A stretch of DNA of 8,052 nt. It comes from Dictyoglomus sp. NZ13-RE01 (GTDB taxonomy: Bacteria > Dictyoglomota > Dictyoglomia > Dictyoglomales > Dictyoglomaceae). Both the position numbers and the translations under genes were made by a program. Below, one piece after another: positions 3,767 to 8,037 of the stretch (position 1 is its first letter; every line of letters starts with the position of its first letter). The stretch is from NCBI GenBank assembly GCA_002878375.1, contig NIRF01000027.1, positions 1-8,052 of the forward strand, read 5' to 3'. The notes beneath the pieces were generated by a model. It ran no database searches, was not told where the DNA came from, and worked only from the letters and a program-made list of their open reading frames with translations.

Positions 3767-3842
3767 TGGTGGCCCTACGGGGATTCGAACCCCGGTTTTT
3801 GGGTTGAGAACCCAACGTCCTGGTCCACTAGACGATAGGGCC
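3767..3842 (-). tRNA. tRNA-Glu, anticodon CTC (reads GAG)
   Basis: The 76-base gene folds into a complete cloverleaf. The acceptor is GGCCCTA with TAGGGCC, the D arm GTC...GAC, and the anticodon stem TTGGG/CCCAA with loop TTCTCAA giving anticodon CUC. The T arm is CGGGG-TTCGAAT-CCCCG, followed by discriminator A and an encoded CCA. The first pair is G1-C72 and the D arm is one base longer than in the neighbouring tRNA-Gln. This is a wobble-C isoacceptor; a UUC tRNA-Glu should exist elsewhere. It lies second in the operon, seven bases after tRNA-Gln. Confidence 0.96.
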
Positions 3843-3849
3843 ATTTAAT

Positions 3850-3924
3850 TGGCTGGGGAGGATGGACTCGAACCATCCCTACCTGATCCAGAGTCAGGCG
3901 TCCTACCAACTAGACGACTCCCCA
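3850..3924 (-). tRNA. tRNA-Gln, anticodon CTG (reads CAG)
   Basis: The 75-base gene forms a full cloverleaf. The acceptor TGGGGAG/CTCCCCA starts with the U1-A72 pair typical of tRNA-Gln. The D arm is GTC...GAC, and the anticodon stem CCTGA/TCAGG encloses loop CTCTGGA with anticodon CUG. The T arm is GATGG-TTCGAGT-CCATC, followed by discriminator G and an encoded CCA. Its D arm is strikingly like that of the adjacent tRNA-Glu. U1-A72 together with the shorter D loop fits the known requirements of the GatCAB amidotransferase route, although a direct GlnRS route cannot be excluded from sequence alone. It is first in the tRNA operon, about nine bases from the predicted transcript start. Confidence 0.96.
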
Positions 3925-3939
3925 GTTAAAACTATGTTA

Positions 3940-3969
3940 ATAATACTAAATCCTTTAGCTTGTTGTCAA
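3940..3969 (-). promoter_or_regulatory. Promoter of the tRNA-Gln/tRNA-Glu operon
   Basis: On the minus strand a perfect -35 box TTGACA (3964-3969) is followed after 18 bases by a near-perfect -10 box TATTAT (3940-3945). Transcription would start near 3933, leaving a short leader before tRNA-Gln at 3924. This is the strongest promoter-like match in the window, as expected for stable RNA genes. Confidence 0.82.
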
Positions 3970-4207
3970 TATTTAAAAGAGTTTTCAGGGTAAATAGGTA
4001 TGGACATAGGAAAGAAATAGATAAATATAAATGGAAGGAAAAACACCTAATTATAAGTTAAGATCAACTATGTTTTTGATTCATCCTCATGTTTTAGAAT
4101 TTCTAGTGATACTCTTAGAAGACTTTTTATCTCTTTATAGTTTGTTTACTAAGAATTTATCTATATTTCTCAAGGGTAGTAACTATGTCTATACCAATTG
4201 CCATTAT
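3970..4207. other. Intergenic spacer without a supportable gene
   Basis: This AT-rich stretch separates the divergent tRNA promoter from the 3' end of the minus-strand phosphatase gene. A 69-codon plus-strand frame runs through it (4031-4240), but it has no Shine-Dalgarno site, its product shows no recognisable family, and its end overlaps the phosphatase gene. No T-tract hairpin was found that would end the phosphatase operon here, so its 3' end is undefined. Confidence 0.6.
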
Positions 4208-4954
4208 CTAAATATTCAAGATTTGAATTGTTACTACTGAAATATTATCAATTCCCCCATTTTGTTTTGCTCTACTAACCAATTCAAATGCCGGATCATT
4301 ACTACTCTTCAGGATAGATTCAATTTCTTCATCTGGAACCATATCTGTTAATCCATCGCTACATAAAATTAGAATATCTCCTTCAAAAATTTTTTTACTA
4401 ACTTGATCAAATTCTACAAAAACTGTATCATTCTTGCCACCAACACAATTTAGAATAATATGAGATTGTATGCCTGTTAGAGCCTTTAGTGAATGGTCTT
4501 TCGATATTTGAACAAGAAGATCATCTCGAAAGCGATATAATCGACTGTCACCTATATTAAGATAATAAATAAACTCCTTATAAAACAATAATCCAATTAA
4601 AGTGGTTCCCATCCCACTTCTTTCAGGGTTTTTATTTGATTCTTCAATAATAATGTTGTGAACTTCTTGAACTATTTCTTGAATTCTTTTTTTCAATTCA
4701 AAGTCTGTTAAGTCAATTTCAAGGAAGGATATTCTATTTCTCATTAAATCAAGAGTCATCTCAGCAGCTATCTCACCAGCCGCATGTCCACCCATTCCAT
4801 CTGCTATTGCAATAAAAAATTTATCATTATTAGAAATAGAAATGTTAAGATCTCGTCGTCCATCTTGTAAAATTTCATCACACACAAGAATTCTATCTTC
4901 ATTCTGTTCCCTTATACAACCTTTATCAGTAATGGCAGTAACATAAATTTCCAT
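4208..4954 (-). CDS. PP2C-family (PPM) Ser/Thr protein phosphatase
   Basis: The 248-residue protein is a single catalytic PP2C domain with all main motifs, so it should be an active Mn/Mg-dependent phosphoprotein phosphatase. Visible motifs are R15-E-Q-N-E-D20; ADGMGGHAAGEIAAE (51-65), with metal-binding D52 and G53; GMGTTL (114-119); NIGDSRLYRF (133-142); ISKDHSL (150-156); LCSDGLTD (197-204, D200); and GGIDNISVV (233-241, D236 and N237). The lid segment after SKDHSL is shorter than in PstP/Stp1-type enzymes. No membrane helix or signal peptide is present, so it is cytoplasmic. Its ATG shares one base with the FHA gene's stop (TAATG), and GGAGAGG (4960-4966) lies five bases upstream. The context suggests it reverses threonine phosphorylation read by the FHA protein; the substrate is not known. 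Confidence 0.95.
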   Translation of the reverse strand: MEIYVTAITDKGCIREQNEDRILVCDEILQDGRRDLNISISNNDKFFIAIADGMGGHAAGEIAAEMTLDLMRNRISFLEIDLTDFELKKRIQEIVQEVHNIIIEESNKNPERSGMGTTLIGLLFYKEFIYYLNIGDSRLYRFRDDLLVQISKDHSLKALTGIQSHIILNCVGGKNDTVFVEFDQVSKKIFEGDILILCSDGLTDMVPDEEIESILKSSNDPAFELVSRAKQNGGIDNISVVTIQILNI

Positions 4955-5502
4955 TATAGCCTCTCCGTTTGTTCACCCACTTGCCTTATTTCAACATAAA
5001 ATTCAATGTTTGCTATTATTAAATAACTGCTATTCTTTAGCGGTACAGGTTGATTTGGTTTCAATGGTACATTTTCGTACATTGTCCCATTAGTTGAACC
5101 AAGGTCTATTACTGTCCATCCAAGTTGGGGATCAAATTTAAATTGACAGTGCTGTCGTGAAACTTTCTTGTATTGTGAAAAGATTTGTGTAAATCGTCCT
5201 ACTGTTCTCCCTATAATATCTTGATCCTGTATAATTAAATCAAGATTAAGATTTCGATTTATAAGATGTAATTCGCTCGAAGATGAAATTTTCTGATTTA
5301 TTCCCTGATAAATATTAGAAGAAGATGTCCCAGAAGATAAATTAACTATCTCGGAGGCTTTAACTAACATGCTTCCATCATAAATGCAAGCTTTGCCACG
5401 TCCTGGCTTACCACATTTTGGACAAATCCATAACTCTTTACCACATTGATCACAAAACCAAGAATCGTCATCAATCTCTGATTTACACCAAGGACAAATC
5501 AT
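4954..5502 (-). CDS. Zinc-ribbon plus FHA-domain protein
   Basis: The 182-residue protein begins with a double zinc-ribbon-like region: C3xxC6, C17xxC20 and C27xxC30, with one further Cys at C39. A serine-rich linker (about 56-76) follows. The rest is an FHA domain (about 85-173), a phosphothreonine-binding beta sandwich. Its signature residues are all present: IIGR with R99; VSRQH with S115, R116 and H118; and GSTNG with N138. Phosphothreonine binding is therefore expected. No membrane segment is seen. It starts 33 bases after the AAA+ gene and overlaps the phosphatase gene by one base. The only nearby ribosome-site candidates are GGGGTGGTGA, about 11 bases upstream, and a weaker AGAGAG. The likely role, by inference, is an adaptor that recruits phosphorylated partners to the AAA+ machine. 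C39 has no obvious fourth partner, so the third zinc site may be incomplete or completed by another residue. Confidence 0.93.
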   Translation of the reverse strand: MICPWCKSEIDDDSWFCDQCGKELWICPKCGKPGRGKACIYDGSMLVKASEIVNLSSGTSSSNIYQGINQKISSSSELHLINRNLNLDLIIQDQDIIGRTVGRFTQIFSQYKKVSRQHCQFKFDPQLGWTVIDLGSTNGTMYENVPLKPNQPVPLKNSSYLIIANIEFYVEIRQVGEQTERL

Positions 5503-5535
5503 TACTCTCTAAATTCACCACCCCATATGATATTT

Positions 5536-8037
5536 TTATAATTTAATTTTAACTATATCATCAATAGTAATAGTATTAAGAACTTCAGGAGATGGATTAC
5601 TTTCTTTCGCCAATTGTGCCAACCTTTCTGCTTGGTTTTGTAAAACTTGCTCAAAAATATTTCTAACAGTACGACCATTTGCAAAATTTTTATCTCTTTT
5701 CTGAGAGATTTGCTCCATTAGATTATAAACGGCTTGCTCTGCATCAGGTTCTAATGTTAAATTCTTTGATTTAACCATATAAATAAATATCGCTGTTAAT
5801 TCTTCCGGATTATAGTCCTCAAAGAAAATATGCTTAGTAAAACGAGAAGATAATCCCGGATTTGTATCCAAAAATTGCTTCATCTCATTCGGATAGCCAG
5901 CAACAATCACTACAAATTTTCCACGATCATCTTCCATTCTCTTAAGAAGTGTATCTATGGCTTCTCGCCCGAAATCTGAAGCTCCTCCTCTGGATAAAGT
6001 GTAAGCTTCATCAATAAAAAGAATGCCCCCAATAGCTTTATCTATTACTTTATTAGTTTTGGGTGCTGTTTGCCCTACATATTCCCCAACAAGATCTTTA
6101 CGATCGACCTCTACTACATGACCCTTTGAAAGTAATCCTAAAGCTTTAAAAATTCCCCCAAGAATACGAGCAACAGTTGTCTTTCCAGTACCAGGATTAC
6201 CATAAAAAACAAAATGTATATTTAATGGCGTTTTTTGTCCACCAATAGTAGCACGCATTTGTTCGACCTTAAGATAGTCCGCTAATCTTTTTATCTCTTC
6301 TTTCACTTGTTTTAATCCAATAAGTTTATCTAATGGTGCTAAAGCATCTTCTAAAGAAATTGGTGCCTCTCCAACATATGCAGAACGAATATCTTCTGCG
6401 CTAATTAAAGAGAGTTCATCCTCACTTATCTCAGGATGTTTGATAATTCGCTTTGATTGGTAAATTATACAATTTTCTAATAAATTCCTTACTTCTCTAG
6501 CATTGGCAAAATTTCGATCTTTCTTCGATACCATGTCTTCGCAAACTCTTCTAAGTTCTTCCTCTGCATTCTCGTCAATTTTATAGCCCTGCTTATGAGC
6601 CATTTTTTTAAAGATAAGAAAAAGTTCCTCTGCAGTATAGTCTGGTAAATGGAAGAAACGCGTAAAACGTGATTTAAGTCCTGGGTTTGAATCTAAGAAA
6701 TTTTGCATTTCATTTGGATAGCCAGCAACAATTACTACAAATTTACCACGATCATCCTCCATCCTCTTAAGAAGTGTATCTATGGCTTCTTTACCAAAAC
6801 TATCATGATCACCTTGAATAAGGGTATAGGCTTCATCGATAAAAAGTATTCCACCTATAGCCTCATCAATTTTTGAGTTTGTCTTAGGTGCTGTTTGCCC
6901 TACATATTCTGCAACAAGATCTTTACGATCAACCTCTACTACATGCCCCTTTTCCAATATGCCTATAGCTTCTAATATTTCACCAAGTTTTCTTGCAATT
7001 GTTGTTTTACCAGTTCCAGGACTTCCTGTTAGAACCATATGAAGATTAGGAATAAAAACCTGATTTCCTTGTTCTGCTCTCTTTTTTTGAATAGTAAGTG
7101 TTGCTACTAGATCCTTGATTTCTTTTTTGATATCATCCATGCCAATAAAGTCATCCAATTCTGACATAATATCCTCAAGTGATCTTACTTCAGCTACTTC
7201 TCCTATTATATCCTCGCTTTTAATAATTTGATCATCATTTGCACCATTCATCACTCGGATAAAATAATTTTTTATAGCTTCCTCTGCTTCTCTAATAGCA
7301 GTATGTCCATAAGCAAAGGATTTATCGCTCACTTTTGTTAAGTATATTAAACGACGTTTCAATCGATCTTGAGCAGAACTATCTAATTCAAAACCTTGTT
7401 CCCTAATCCTTCCTTCCGCTATTAAATAAAGTTGCTCAACACTTAAATCTGGTAAAGTAAATTTATAAGGAAAAAGCTCATTCAAACGAGGATTAACTTT
7501 AAGATAATCATCAAAACCATCTGGTAAGCCTACAAGAAAAACAATAGGATCCCCATTTGATTTGCGCATTTCTGTGAAGAGTTTATCTAATGAGTCAATT
7601 CCAATTGGGGAATTACTTGAGATAAGTTTTTGAACATCATTAATGATAAGAAGTCCACCTTTAGTTTTTTGGAAATTTTGTTCAAAATCTTTTGCAAAAC
7701 GATTATAATCAACTGCTTCAATTGTTGTTATATCCTTTATAAGTCCATTCTCTTGAAAAACAGTTGCTAAATAATTTGCTAATTTAGTTTTACCGGTTCC
7801 TGCCTTACCTATTATGATACTATTTAAACATAGAGTTATATTATATCCCCTCTTTTTTCTTTCCCCAAGTCCTTTAGCAATTTCCATAACATGATTAACC
7901 TTTTCTTTAATAGAGTCTGGAATTATTAATTCACTTAATTTAACCACAGATAAACTTTTTAAACGAACTCCACAATGTTTACAATATATTGCAGAATCTC
8001 TATTTATAGTATGACAATTATTGCAAGTTATACTCAT
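5536..8037 (-). CDS. Zinc-ribbon protein with three CbxX/CfxQ-type AAA+ modules
   Basis: The 833-residue protein has an N-terminal zinc ribbon (C5xxC8, C19xxC22) and three AAA+ modules related to CbbX, SpoVK and EccA. Module 1 (about 40-260) keeps Walker A GKAGTGKT (77-84), but its Walker B ends IIND (131-134) where the others have FIDE. It has L188 at the arginine-finger position and H245/I248 at the sensor-2 arginines, so it probably binds but does not hydrolyse ATP normally. Module 2 (about 285-535) has Walker A 338-345, D401/E402, arginine finger R457 and sensor-2 R514/R517. Module 3 (about 560-805) has Walker A 613-620, D676/E677, R732 and R789/R792; both look active. No membrane segment is seen. 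By family it should form hexameric rings that remodel or unfold a protein target. An RBS (AGGTGAG) six bases before the ATG supports this start. The target is unknown; the FHA and PP2C genes follow. Confidence 0.94.
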   Translation of the reverse strand: MSITCNNCHTINRDSAIYCKHCGVRLKSLSVVKLSELIIPDSIKEKVNHVMEIAKGLGERKKRGYNITLCLNSIIIGKAGTGKTKLANYLATVFQENGLIKDITTIEAVDYNRFAKDFEQNFQKTKGGLLIINDVQKLISSNSPIGIDSLDKLFTEMRKSNGDPIVFLVGLPDGFDDYLKVNPRLNELFPYKFTLPDLSVEQLYLIAEGRIREQGFELDSSAQDRLKRRLIYLTKVSDKSFAYGHTAIREAEEAIKNYFIRVMNGANDDQIIKSEDIIGEVAEVRSLEDIMSELDDFIGMDDIKKEIKDLVATLTIQKKRAEQGNQVFIPNLHMVLTGSPGTGKTTIARKLGEILEAIGILEKGHVVEVDRKDLVAEYVGQTAPKTNSKIDEAIGGILFIDEAYTLIQGDHDSFGKEAIDTLLKRMEDDRGKFVVIVAGYPNEMQNFLDSNPGLKSRFTRFFHLPDYTAEELFLIFKKMAHKQGYKIDENAEEELRRVCEDMVSKKDRNFANAREVRNLLENCIIYQSKRIIKHPEISEDELSLISAEDIRSAYVGEAPISLEDALAPLDKLIGLKQVKEEIKRLADYLKVEQMRATIGGQKTPLNIHFVFYGNPGTGKTTVARILGGIFKALGLLSKGHVVEVDRKDLVGEYVGQTAPKTNKVIDKAIGGILFIDEAYTLSRGGASDFGREAIDTLLKRMEDDRGKFVVIVAGYPNEMKQFLDTNPGLSSRFTKHIFFEDYNPEELTAIFIYMVKSKNLTLEPDAEQAVYNLMEQISQKRDKNFANGRTVRNIFEQVLQNQAERLAQLAKESNPSPEVLNTITIDDIVKIKL
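5891..5965 (-). repeat. Internal repeat A1 (module 3 copy), paired with 6716-6790
   Basis: This 75-base segment of AAA+ module 3 matches 6716-6790 of module 2 with four differences by eye. The encoded stretch after the Walker B helix (from EAIDTLLKRM to PNEM) is identical in both modules. It includes the sensor-1 strand. Confidence 0.9.
6062..6120 (-). repeat. Internal repeat B1 (module 3 copy), paired with 6887-6945
   Basis: This 59-base segment encodes the pore-loop-side stretch HVVEVDRKDLVGEYVGQTAP and differs from the module 2 copy at three bases, two of them adjacent and causing the single Gly/Ala change. Confidence 0.9.
6716..6790 (-). repeat. Internal repeat A2 (module 2 copy), paired with 5891-5965
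   Basis: This is the module 2 partner of the 75-base repeat, with about 95% identity by direct comparison. The four differences do not change the protein. The two copies are 825 bases apart, the same distance as between equivalent residues of the two modules. Confidence 0.9.
6887..6945 (-). repeat. Internal repeat B2 (module 2 copy), paired with 6062-6120
   Basis: This is the module 2 partner of the 59-base repeat, covering residues from about 365 to 384, with A376 where module 3 has G651. It is again offset by 825 bases. Confidence 0.9.

What the first reader, a model, noticed from the sequence alone, without database searches (positions are those of the whole stretch)
4208..8037. Compact operon joining a triple AAA+ machine to a phosphothreonine reader (FHA) and eraser (PP2C)
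Seen: three same-strand genes with gaps of 33 and -1 bases encode zinc-ribbon/AAA+x3, zinc-ribbon/FHA and PP2C. Known: FHA domains bind phosphothreonine; PP2C removes such marks; CbxX/CfxQ AAA+ proteins remodel partners (CbbX on Rubisco, EccA in ESX secretion), and kinase/FHA/PP2C sets control type VI secretion. Inferred: a phospho-switched remodelling or assembly machine. No Rubisco, ESX or T6SS gene is in view, so this may be a distinct and poorly described system.
Basis: partly seen in the sequence, partly recalled or inferred. Interest (0 to 1): 0.68.

Follow-up and report, generated by a model that had tools for sequence, protein, structure and literature searches.

The report
Phospho-switched triple-ATPase gene cassette
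Three adjacent genes of a Dictyoglomus-like bacterium encode a protein-remodelling ATPase with three motor domains, a reader of phosphate marks and an eraser of them; together with a kinase that writes such marks the set recurs in distantly related bacteria and looks like an undescribed mobile switch-controlled machine, possibly an anti-virus one.

Summary
In detail: zinc-ribbon/AAA+x3 (5536-8037), zinc-ribbon/FHA (4954-5502) and PP2C (4208-4954), minus strand, gaps 33 and -1. The window is a whole 8052-bp contig and cannot be extended. The cassette was inserted beside two tRNA genes after groEL; relatives keep GT-groES-groEL-tRNAs but lack the cassette. Two distant genomes carry the same genes (46-55% identity) in one operon, and there the first gene is a Ser/Thr kinase. 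The window's genome has that kinase (51%) and its zinc-ribbon partner elsewhere, between Hma and BREX type 4 defence genes; it is one of only two kinases found in the genome. Kinase, reader and eraser motifs are intact. AAA domains 2 and 3 keep motor residues; domain 1 has lost them in all three. Best reading: a kinase/FHA/PP2C-switched AAA+ remodeller that works like the T6SS threonine-phosphorylation pathway, with no T6SS, T7SS or Rubisco genes at the loci. A defence role is plausible, not shown. A new combination of known parts; I found no description of it.

The parts
5536..8037 (-). AAA+x3 protein, 833 aa, CbxX/CfxQ type, N-terminal zinc ribbon
7945..8037 (-). Zinc ribbon of the AAA+ protein (residues 1-31; C5, C8, C19, C22 invariant)
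7183..7944 (-). AAA domain 1, degenerate: Walker A kept, no Walker B Glu, no YVG pore loop, arginine-finger motif not kept; conserved FAKDFExN instead
6373..7182 (-). AAA domain 2, motor motifs intact (Walker A/B, YVG pore loop, NPGLxSRF)
5539..6372 (-). AAA domain 3, motor motifs intact; closest solved relative CbbX
4954..5502 (-). Zinc-ribbon/FHA protein, 182 aa; pThr-pocket residues R99, S115, H118 invariant
4208..4954 (-). PP2C phosphatase, 248 aa; metal-site motifs (NED, DGMGG, SDGL, DN) invariant
3767..3924 (-). tRNA-Glu and tRNA-Gln genes; DNA shared with relatives stops at 3924-3974, so this is the near edge of the insertion

Best explanation
A horizontally spread cassette in which a Ser/Thr kinase senses something through its C-terminal part (TPR repeats in this genome, membrane helices in the other two) and phosphorylates threonines of itself or of partners; the zinc-ribbon/FHA adaptor reads the mark and brings the marked partner to the zinc-ribbon AAA+ protein; AAA domains 2 and 3 hydrolyse ATP and remodel or unfold the client, with inert domain 1 as docking ring; PP2C erases the marks and resets. 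Shown by sequence: gene set, order, conservation across three genomes, intact catalytic and binding motifs, dead domain 1, the kinase partner in the same genome. Inferred: kinase-to-FHA-to-AAA+ information flow, recruitment, remodelling activity, the signal and the client.
For: Same order AAA+/(repeat protein)/FHA/PP2C with the kinase directly upstream in L039 (4-base overlap) and L080 (14-base gap). Orthologue identities: AAA+ 53-55%, FHA 54-55%, PP2C 46-48%, kinase region 52-53%. The window's genome has just two Pkinase genes, one of them the orthologue. Kinase, PP2C and FHA show the same branching, G000 apart from G392+G311 (support for FHA only 0.75), as expected for parts that travel together. 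In a 386-genome sample the only close FHA match outside the own genome is in G311, which also has the only close kinase match. HRD/DFG, FHA pocket and PP2C metal residues are invariant. D2/D3 carry YVG pore loops aligned with CbbX; D1 is inactivated in all three.
Against: Only three instances known. In the window's genome kinase and AAA+ lie on different contigs, and whatever is directly upstream of the AAA+ gene is unknown. No interaction, phosphosite or client is shown. A zinc ribbon shared by three components may serve DNA or membrane binding rather than docking. The kinase model was too poor to interpret (pLDDT 41).
Confidence: 0.5

Rival explanations
1. The cassette is an anti-phage or anti-plasmid defence system: the kinase senses infection, the FHA/AAA+ module acts as effector on host or invader complexes, PP2C keeps it off. 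This is a claim about role and is compatible with the mechanism above.
For: Kinase and ZR4 genes lie between HmaABC and brxL-pglZ-brxC-brxP; a type IIG restriction gene lies 2.3 kb past the L039 operon; insertion at a tRNA-flanked variable site where relatives differ (GmrSD near groEL in G004); patchy distribution, absent from same-genus genomes. KKP shows that a kinase/FHA/PP2C set can defend against phages (PMC11341870).
Against: No PADLOC family fits the FHA or PP2C protein. The mad6 kinase match is generic: a control kinase scores higher. No nuclease or recognisable toxin in the operons. The AAA+/FHA/PP2C part in the window is not in the defence island, and G311's flanking genes scanned are not defence genes.
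Confidence: 0.35
2. A chaperone-like stress or quality-control system: phosphorylation gates an AAA+ disaggregase or unfoldase acting on host proteins.
For: p97/Cdc48-type tandem AAA proteins follow CbbX in the fold search; GroEL next door in the window and, for a related triple AAA+ gene, in L040.
Against: GroEL adjacency is older synteny shared by relatives without the cassette; neither L039 nor L080 has GroEL beside the operon; sporadic occurrence does not fit housekeeping.
Confidence: 0.2
3. An EccA-like accessory of a type VII-like secretion or cell-surface assembly system.
For: EccA1 is among the three closest solved proteins; Streptomyces beta-helix/AAA+ relatives sit beside eccB/eccD/eccCa.
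Against: No T7SS gene in the three loci as read; architecture differs from EccA; the Streptomyces locus shows no relative of the FHA, PP2C or kinase genes.
Confidence: 0.07
4. A CbbX-like activase for one metabolic enzyme, with phosphorylation as fine control.
For: Domain 3 is closest to CbbX among solved structures.
Against: No carbon-fixation gene at any of the three loci; three AAA domains instead of one; kinase/FHA/PP2C genes are not known beside cbbX (own knowledge).
Confidence: 0.05

Closest known systems
T6SS threonine-phosphorylation pathway (PpkA kinase, PppA PP2C, Fha; with ClpV AAA+)
   Same: Same four roles: kinase, PP2C, FHA reader, AAA+ machine (PMC3953482 for PpkA and Fha)
   Different: No T6SS structural gene in the three loci; AAA+ is CbxX type with three domains, not ClpV; the FHA protein has a zinc ribbon
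CbbX / EccA / SpoVK (CbxX/CfxQ AAA+)
   Same: AAA fold, pore loop and lid domain of domains 2 and 3
   Different: Those have a single such AAA domain; here three plus a zinc ribbon, the first one dead, linked to kinase/FHA/PP2C
KKP prophage kinase-kinase-phosphatase module (PMC11341870)
   Same: Kinase, FHA domain and PP2C in one mobile module, with antiphage effect
   Different: KKP has two kinases, the FHA fused to one of them, a cold-shock domain on the other, and no AAA+ protein
Kinase/PP2C/vWA theme of GAP1-N2 conflict systems (PMC7159879)
   Same: Kinase (often with zinc ribbon) next to PP2C in multi-gene conflict loci
   Different: Built on GTPases and vWA; no CbxX AAA+ and no ZR-FHA protein described there
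Radical-SAM / ClpB-like AAA / ZR-FHA / PP2C / kinase clusters (L095, L096, L099, L064; seen here, no description found)
   Same: Same ZR-FHA, PP2C and kinase core around an AAA+ protein
   Different: AAA+ is ClpB-D2-like (AAA_2), extra radical-SAM gene; shared parts 20-38% identical

Membership tests
CbbX (Rubisco activase) | Single AAA domain, about 290 aa | tested here: not met
   833 aa, three AAA domains; it passes the NCBIfam cut-offs of SpoVK, EccA and CbbX all at once, with scores summed over three stretches
CbbX (Rubisco activase) | Rubisco genes adjacent | tested here: not met
   None in window, L039 or L080; the contig end limits the window
EccA (T7SS) | N-terminal TPR-type domain plus one AAA domain, beside ecc/esx genes | tested here: not met
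   Zinc ribbon plus three AAA domains; no ecc gene seen at the three loci
T6SS threonine-phosphorylation pathway | Kinase + PP2C + FHA reader | tested here: met
T6SS threonine-phosphorylation pathway | T6SS structural genes (TssB/C, TssL/M) with the set | tested here: inconclusive
   None in the loci read; whole genomes not searched for them
KKP | PP2C followed by two kinases, one fused to FHA, one to CSD | tested here: not met
   FHA is a separate zinc-ribbon protein, one kinase, no CSD hit
MADS defence system | mad6-type kinase | tested here: inconclusive
   E 2.7e-47 over the kinase domain only; an unrelated control kinase of the same genome scores 8e-80
Known PADLOC defence systems | A system model matched by the FHA or PP2C protein | tested here: not met
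   no FHA hit; only a marginal E 0.004 hit for the window PP2C, none for the L039 PP2C at 1e-6

The most novel reading that the evidence does not exclude
An undescribed multi-gene immune system: infection is sensed by an interchangeable kinase sensor (TPR or membrane type, with ankyrin/WG partners), relayed by phosphothreonine through a zinc-ribbon FHA adaptor to a triple-domain AAA+ unfoldase that dismantles phage or host complexes, with PP2C as safety catch; a parallel cassette uses a ClpB-like AAA and a radical-SAM enzyme in the same frame.
Probability: 0.27. Interest if true: 0.8.

Novelty: new variant of a known kind. Interest (0 to 1): 0.52.

Why it matters
Phosphothreonine switches coupled to AAA+ machines are known mainly from T6SS. 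This set has the writer-reader-eraser-motor parts list in a compact, portable form without a secretion system. If the model holds, one could test directly how an FHA adaptor hands a phospho-marked client to an AAA+ motor, and whether such switches are a further class of bacterial immunity. A second cassette family with a similar phospho-core but another motor suggests that the switch is a general module.

Tried and rejected
MADS membership through the mad6 match: rejected as generic after a control kinase scored higher. Contamination of the bin: rejected, as GT-groES-groEL-tRNA synteny and 91-96% GroEL identity tie the contig to its family. Extending the contig by overlap of its last 253 bases: no overlapping contig. 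Viral and plasmid origin: no viral-contig relative of the AAA+ alignment, only one kinase-domain hit, no plasmid relative of the FHA protein. Link of the C8 beta-helix gene to the beta-helix of the Streptomyces AAA+ proteins: similarity too weak. Kinase structure prediction: unusable. Literature searches gave no paper describing this gene set; subscription papers are mostly missing from that library, so this is weak evidence of novelty.

Full report
OBSERVATION. The three genes are as described: AAA+x3 5536-8037, zinc-ribbon/FHA 4954-5502, PP2C 4208-4954, all on the minus strand, 33 bases apart and overlapping by one base; Pfam confirms the domains. The window is the whole of contig C27 (8052 bp) of a 1.93-Mb, 34-contig genome. 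The AAA+ gene starts 15 bases from the contig end, and no other contig overlaps that end.

THE INSERTION. Upstream in the window are a glycosyltransferase, groES and groEL, then tRNA-Glu and tRNA-Gln on the minus strand. Beyond it every relative has other genes. These relatives also lack close matches to the AAA+ and FHA genes genome-wide. So the contig belongs to its genome, and the cassette is a lineage-specific insertion at a variable site.

THE FULL OPERON ELSEWHERE. A pattern-based scan of 84,980 species' contigs found one full-length close relative of the AAA+ protein, L039 (55%). Its operon reads Ser/Thr kinase (892 aa), AAA+x3, a short ORF with an ankyrin-like start and a WG repeat, ZR-FHA (53%), PP2C (48%), and a protein with several zinc ribbons (ZR4). 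A survey of 386 genomes with the FHA protein found one more, G311: kinase (899 aa), AAA+x3, ankyrin-repeat protein (514 aa), ZR-FHA, PP2C, PEGA-domain protein. GroEL of the two hosts is 65% and 61% identical to the window's, i.e. distant bacteria; the eight other genomes held of G311's phylum lack the kinase.

THE KINASE IN THE WINDOW'S GENOME. Only two genes match Pkinase. One, on contig C8, is 51% identical to the L039 kinase over 498 aa and is preceded by a ZR4 gene overlapping it by four bases. It carries TPR repeats where the other two kinases have hydrophobic, membrane-type segments. Its neighbours are HmaC-HmaB-HmaA on one side and BrxL-PglZ-BrxC-BrxP (BREX type 4) on the other. Small trees of kinase, PP2C and FHA all put G000 apart from G392+G311, as expected if the C8 kinase belongs with the window's genes. 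All three kinases start with a short segment holding repeated SGV motifs, a possible phospho-acceptor region (inference).

ANATOMY OF THE PARTS. Kinase: HRD, DFG and APE-type motifs present in all three. FHA: G98/R99, S115 and H118, the usual pThr pocket, invariant; closest solved relatives are mycobacterial TB39.8 FHA domains. PP2C: the acidic metal-site motifs are invariant; nearest solved relatives are bacterial PP2C phosphatases such as 5iti/2j82 and PstP. AAA+: domains 2 and 3 keep Walker A, Walker B with Glu, a YVG pore loop and NPGLxSRF; domain 1 has Walker A but Walker B without the Glu (IIND/FIDN), no YVG and no conserved arginine-finger motif, with a conserved FAKDFExN in the pore-loop place. 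Domain 3 matches CbbX at E 1e-62, domain 1 only at 2e-9. The predicted model (pLDDT 74) matches CbbX first and then p97/Cdc48-type tandem AAA proteins. Domain 1 is 75% identical between the two genomes with membrane-type kinases but 41-45% to the window's, while domains 2 and 3 differ evenly (56-66%); with three sequences this only hints that domain 1 faces the kinase.

MECHANISM. I take the set to be a phosphothreonine-switched remodeller: the kinase writes, the FHA adaptor reads and delivers, AAA+ D2/D3 remodel, PP2C resets. The parts and their integrity are shown; the flow between them is inferred. The biological role is open; defence is the likeliest single role (0.35), because of the Hma/BREX setting of the kinase, a nearby type IIG gene in L039, the tRNA-side insertion and the patchy distribution. 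These are associations from three loci.

MEMBERSHIP. It is not CbbX, EccA or SpoVK (domain number, neighbours; one search shows it passing three mutually exclusive cut-offs at once, with scores summed over repeats). It works like the T6SS threonine-phosphorylation pathway, but no T6SS gene was seen at the loci. It is not KKP (no fused FHA, no CSD, AAA+ added). The mad6 match is generic.

A SISTER THEME. Clusters with a ClpB-D2-like AAA (AAA_2), a radical-SAM protein, ZR-FHA, PP2C and kinase occur in Aristaeella lactis (plasmid) and G271 and, in part, in G261, G363 and G005, the last of the window's own family. Their shared parts are 20-38% identical to the window's, so a similar phospho-core appears to be paired with different AAA+ motors.

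VERDICT. Real, conserved, rare, apparently undescribed in the searchable literature, built of known parts in a new combination. Main limits: three instances, split loci in the window's own genome, no experiment.

Noticed in passing
L084:6306-14913, L038:10981-14753, L085:756-7364 (contig C8): Defence island with HmaABC and BREX type 4 (BrxL, PglZ, BrxC, BrxP), with the kinase/ZR4 pair, a beta-helix gene and a sigma-70 factor between them.
   Followed up: partly
L095:11818-23232, L096:56-6596, L099:12082-17859, L083:262-2596, L064:2-2006: A second cassette family: ClpB-D2-like AAA, radical-SAM protein, ZR-FHA, PP2C and kinases (some loci partial), on a plasmid and in several chromosomes; no description found.
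   Followed up: partly
window 3924-4208 and L108-L111: The site after groEL and the tRNA-Gln/tRNA-Glu genes holds different genes in each relative, including a GmrSD-like gene in G004 (L111:3195-5033).
   Followed up: partly
L047:8327-11662: Streptomyces plasmid proteins annotated as beta-helix proteins carry CbxX-type AAA domains in their C-terminal half and sit beside T7SS genes eccB, eccD, eccCa and a subtilase.
   Followed up: no
L040:4950-10709: Ignavibacteria MAG: a 1337-aa protein with repeated CbxX-type AAA domains directly downstream of groEL, without FHA or PP2C.
   Followed up: no
L036:9247-17899: The genome's other FHA protein lies beside genes that look by eye like MoxR, DUF58 and vWA genes, a different setting (not scanned).
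   Followed up: no
window 7183-7944 (AAA domain 1): Degenerate AAA domain 1 is 75% identical between L039 and L080 but 41-45% to the window's, whereas domains 2 and 3 differ evenly.
   Followed up: partly
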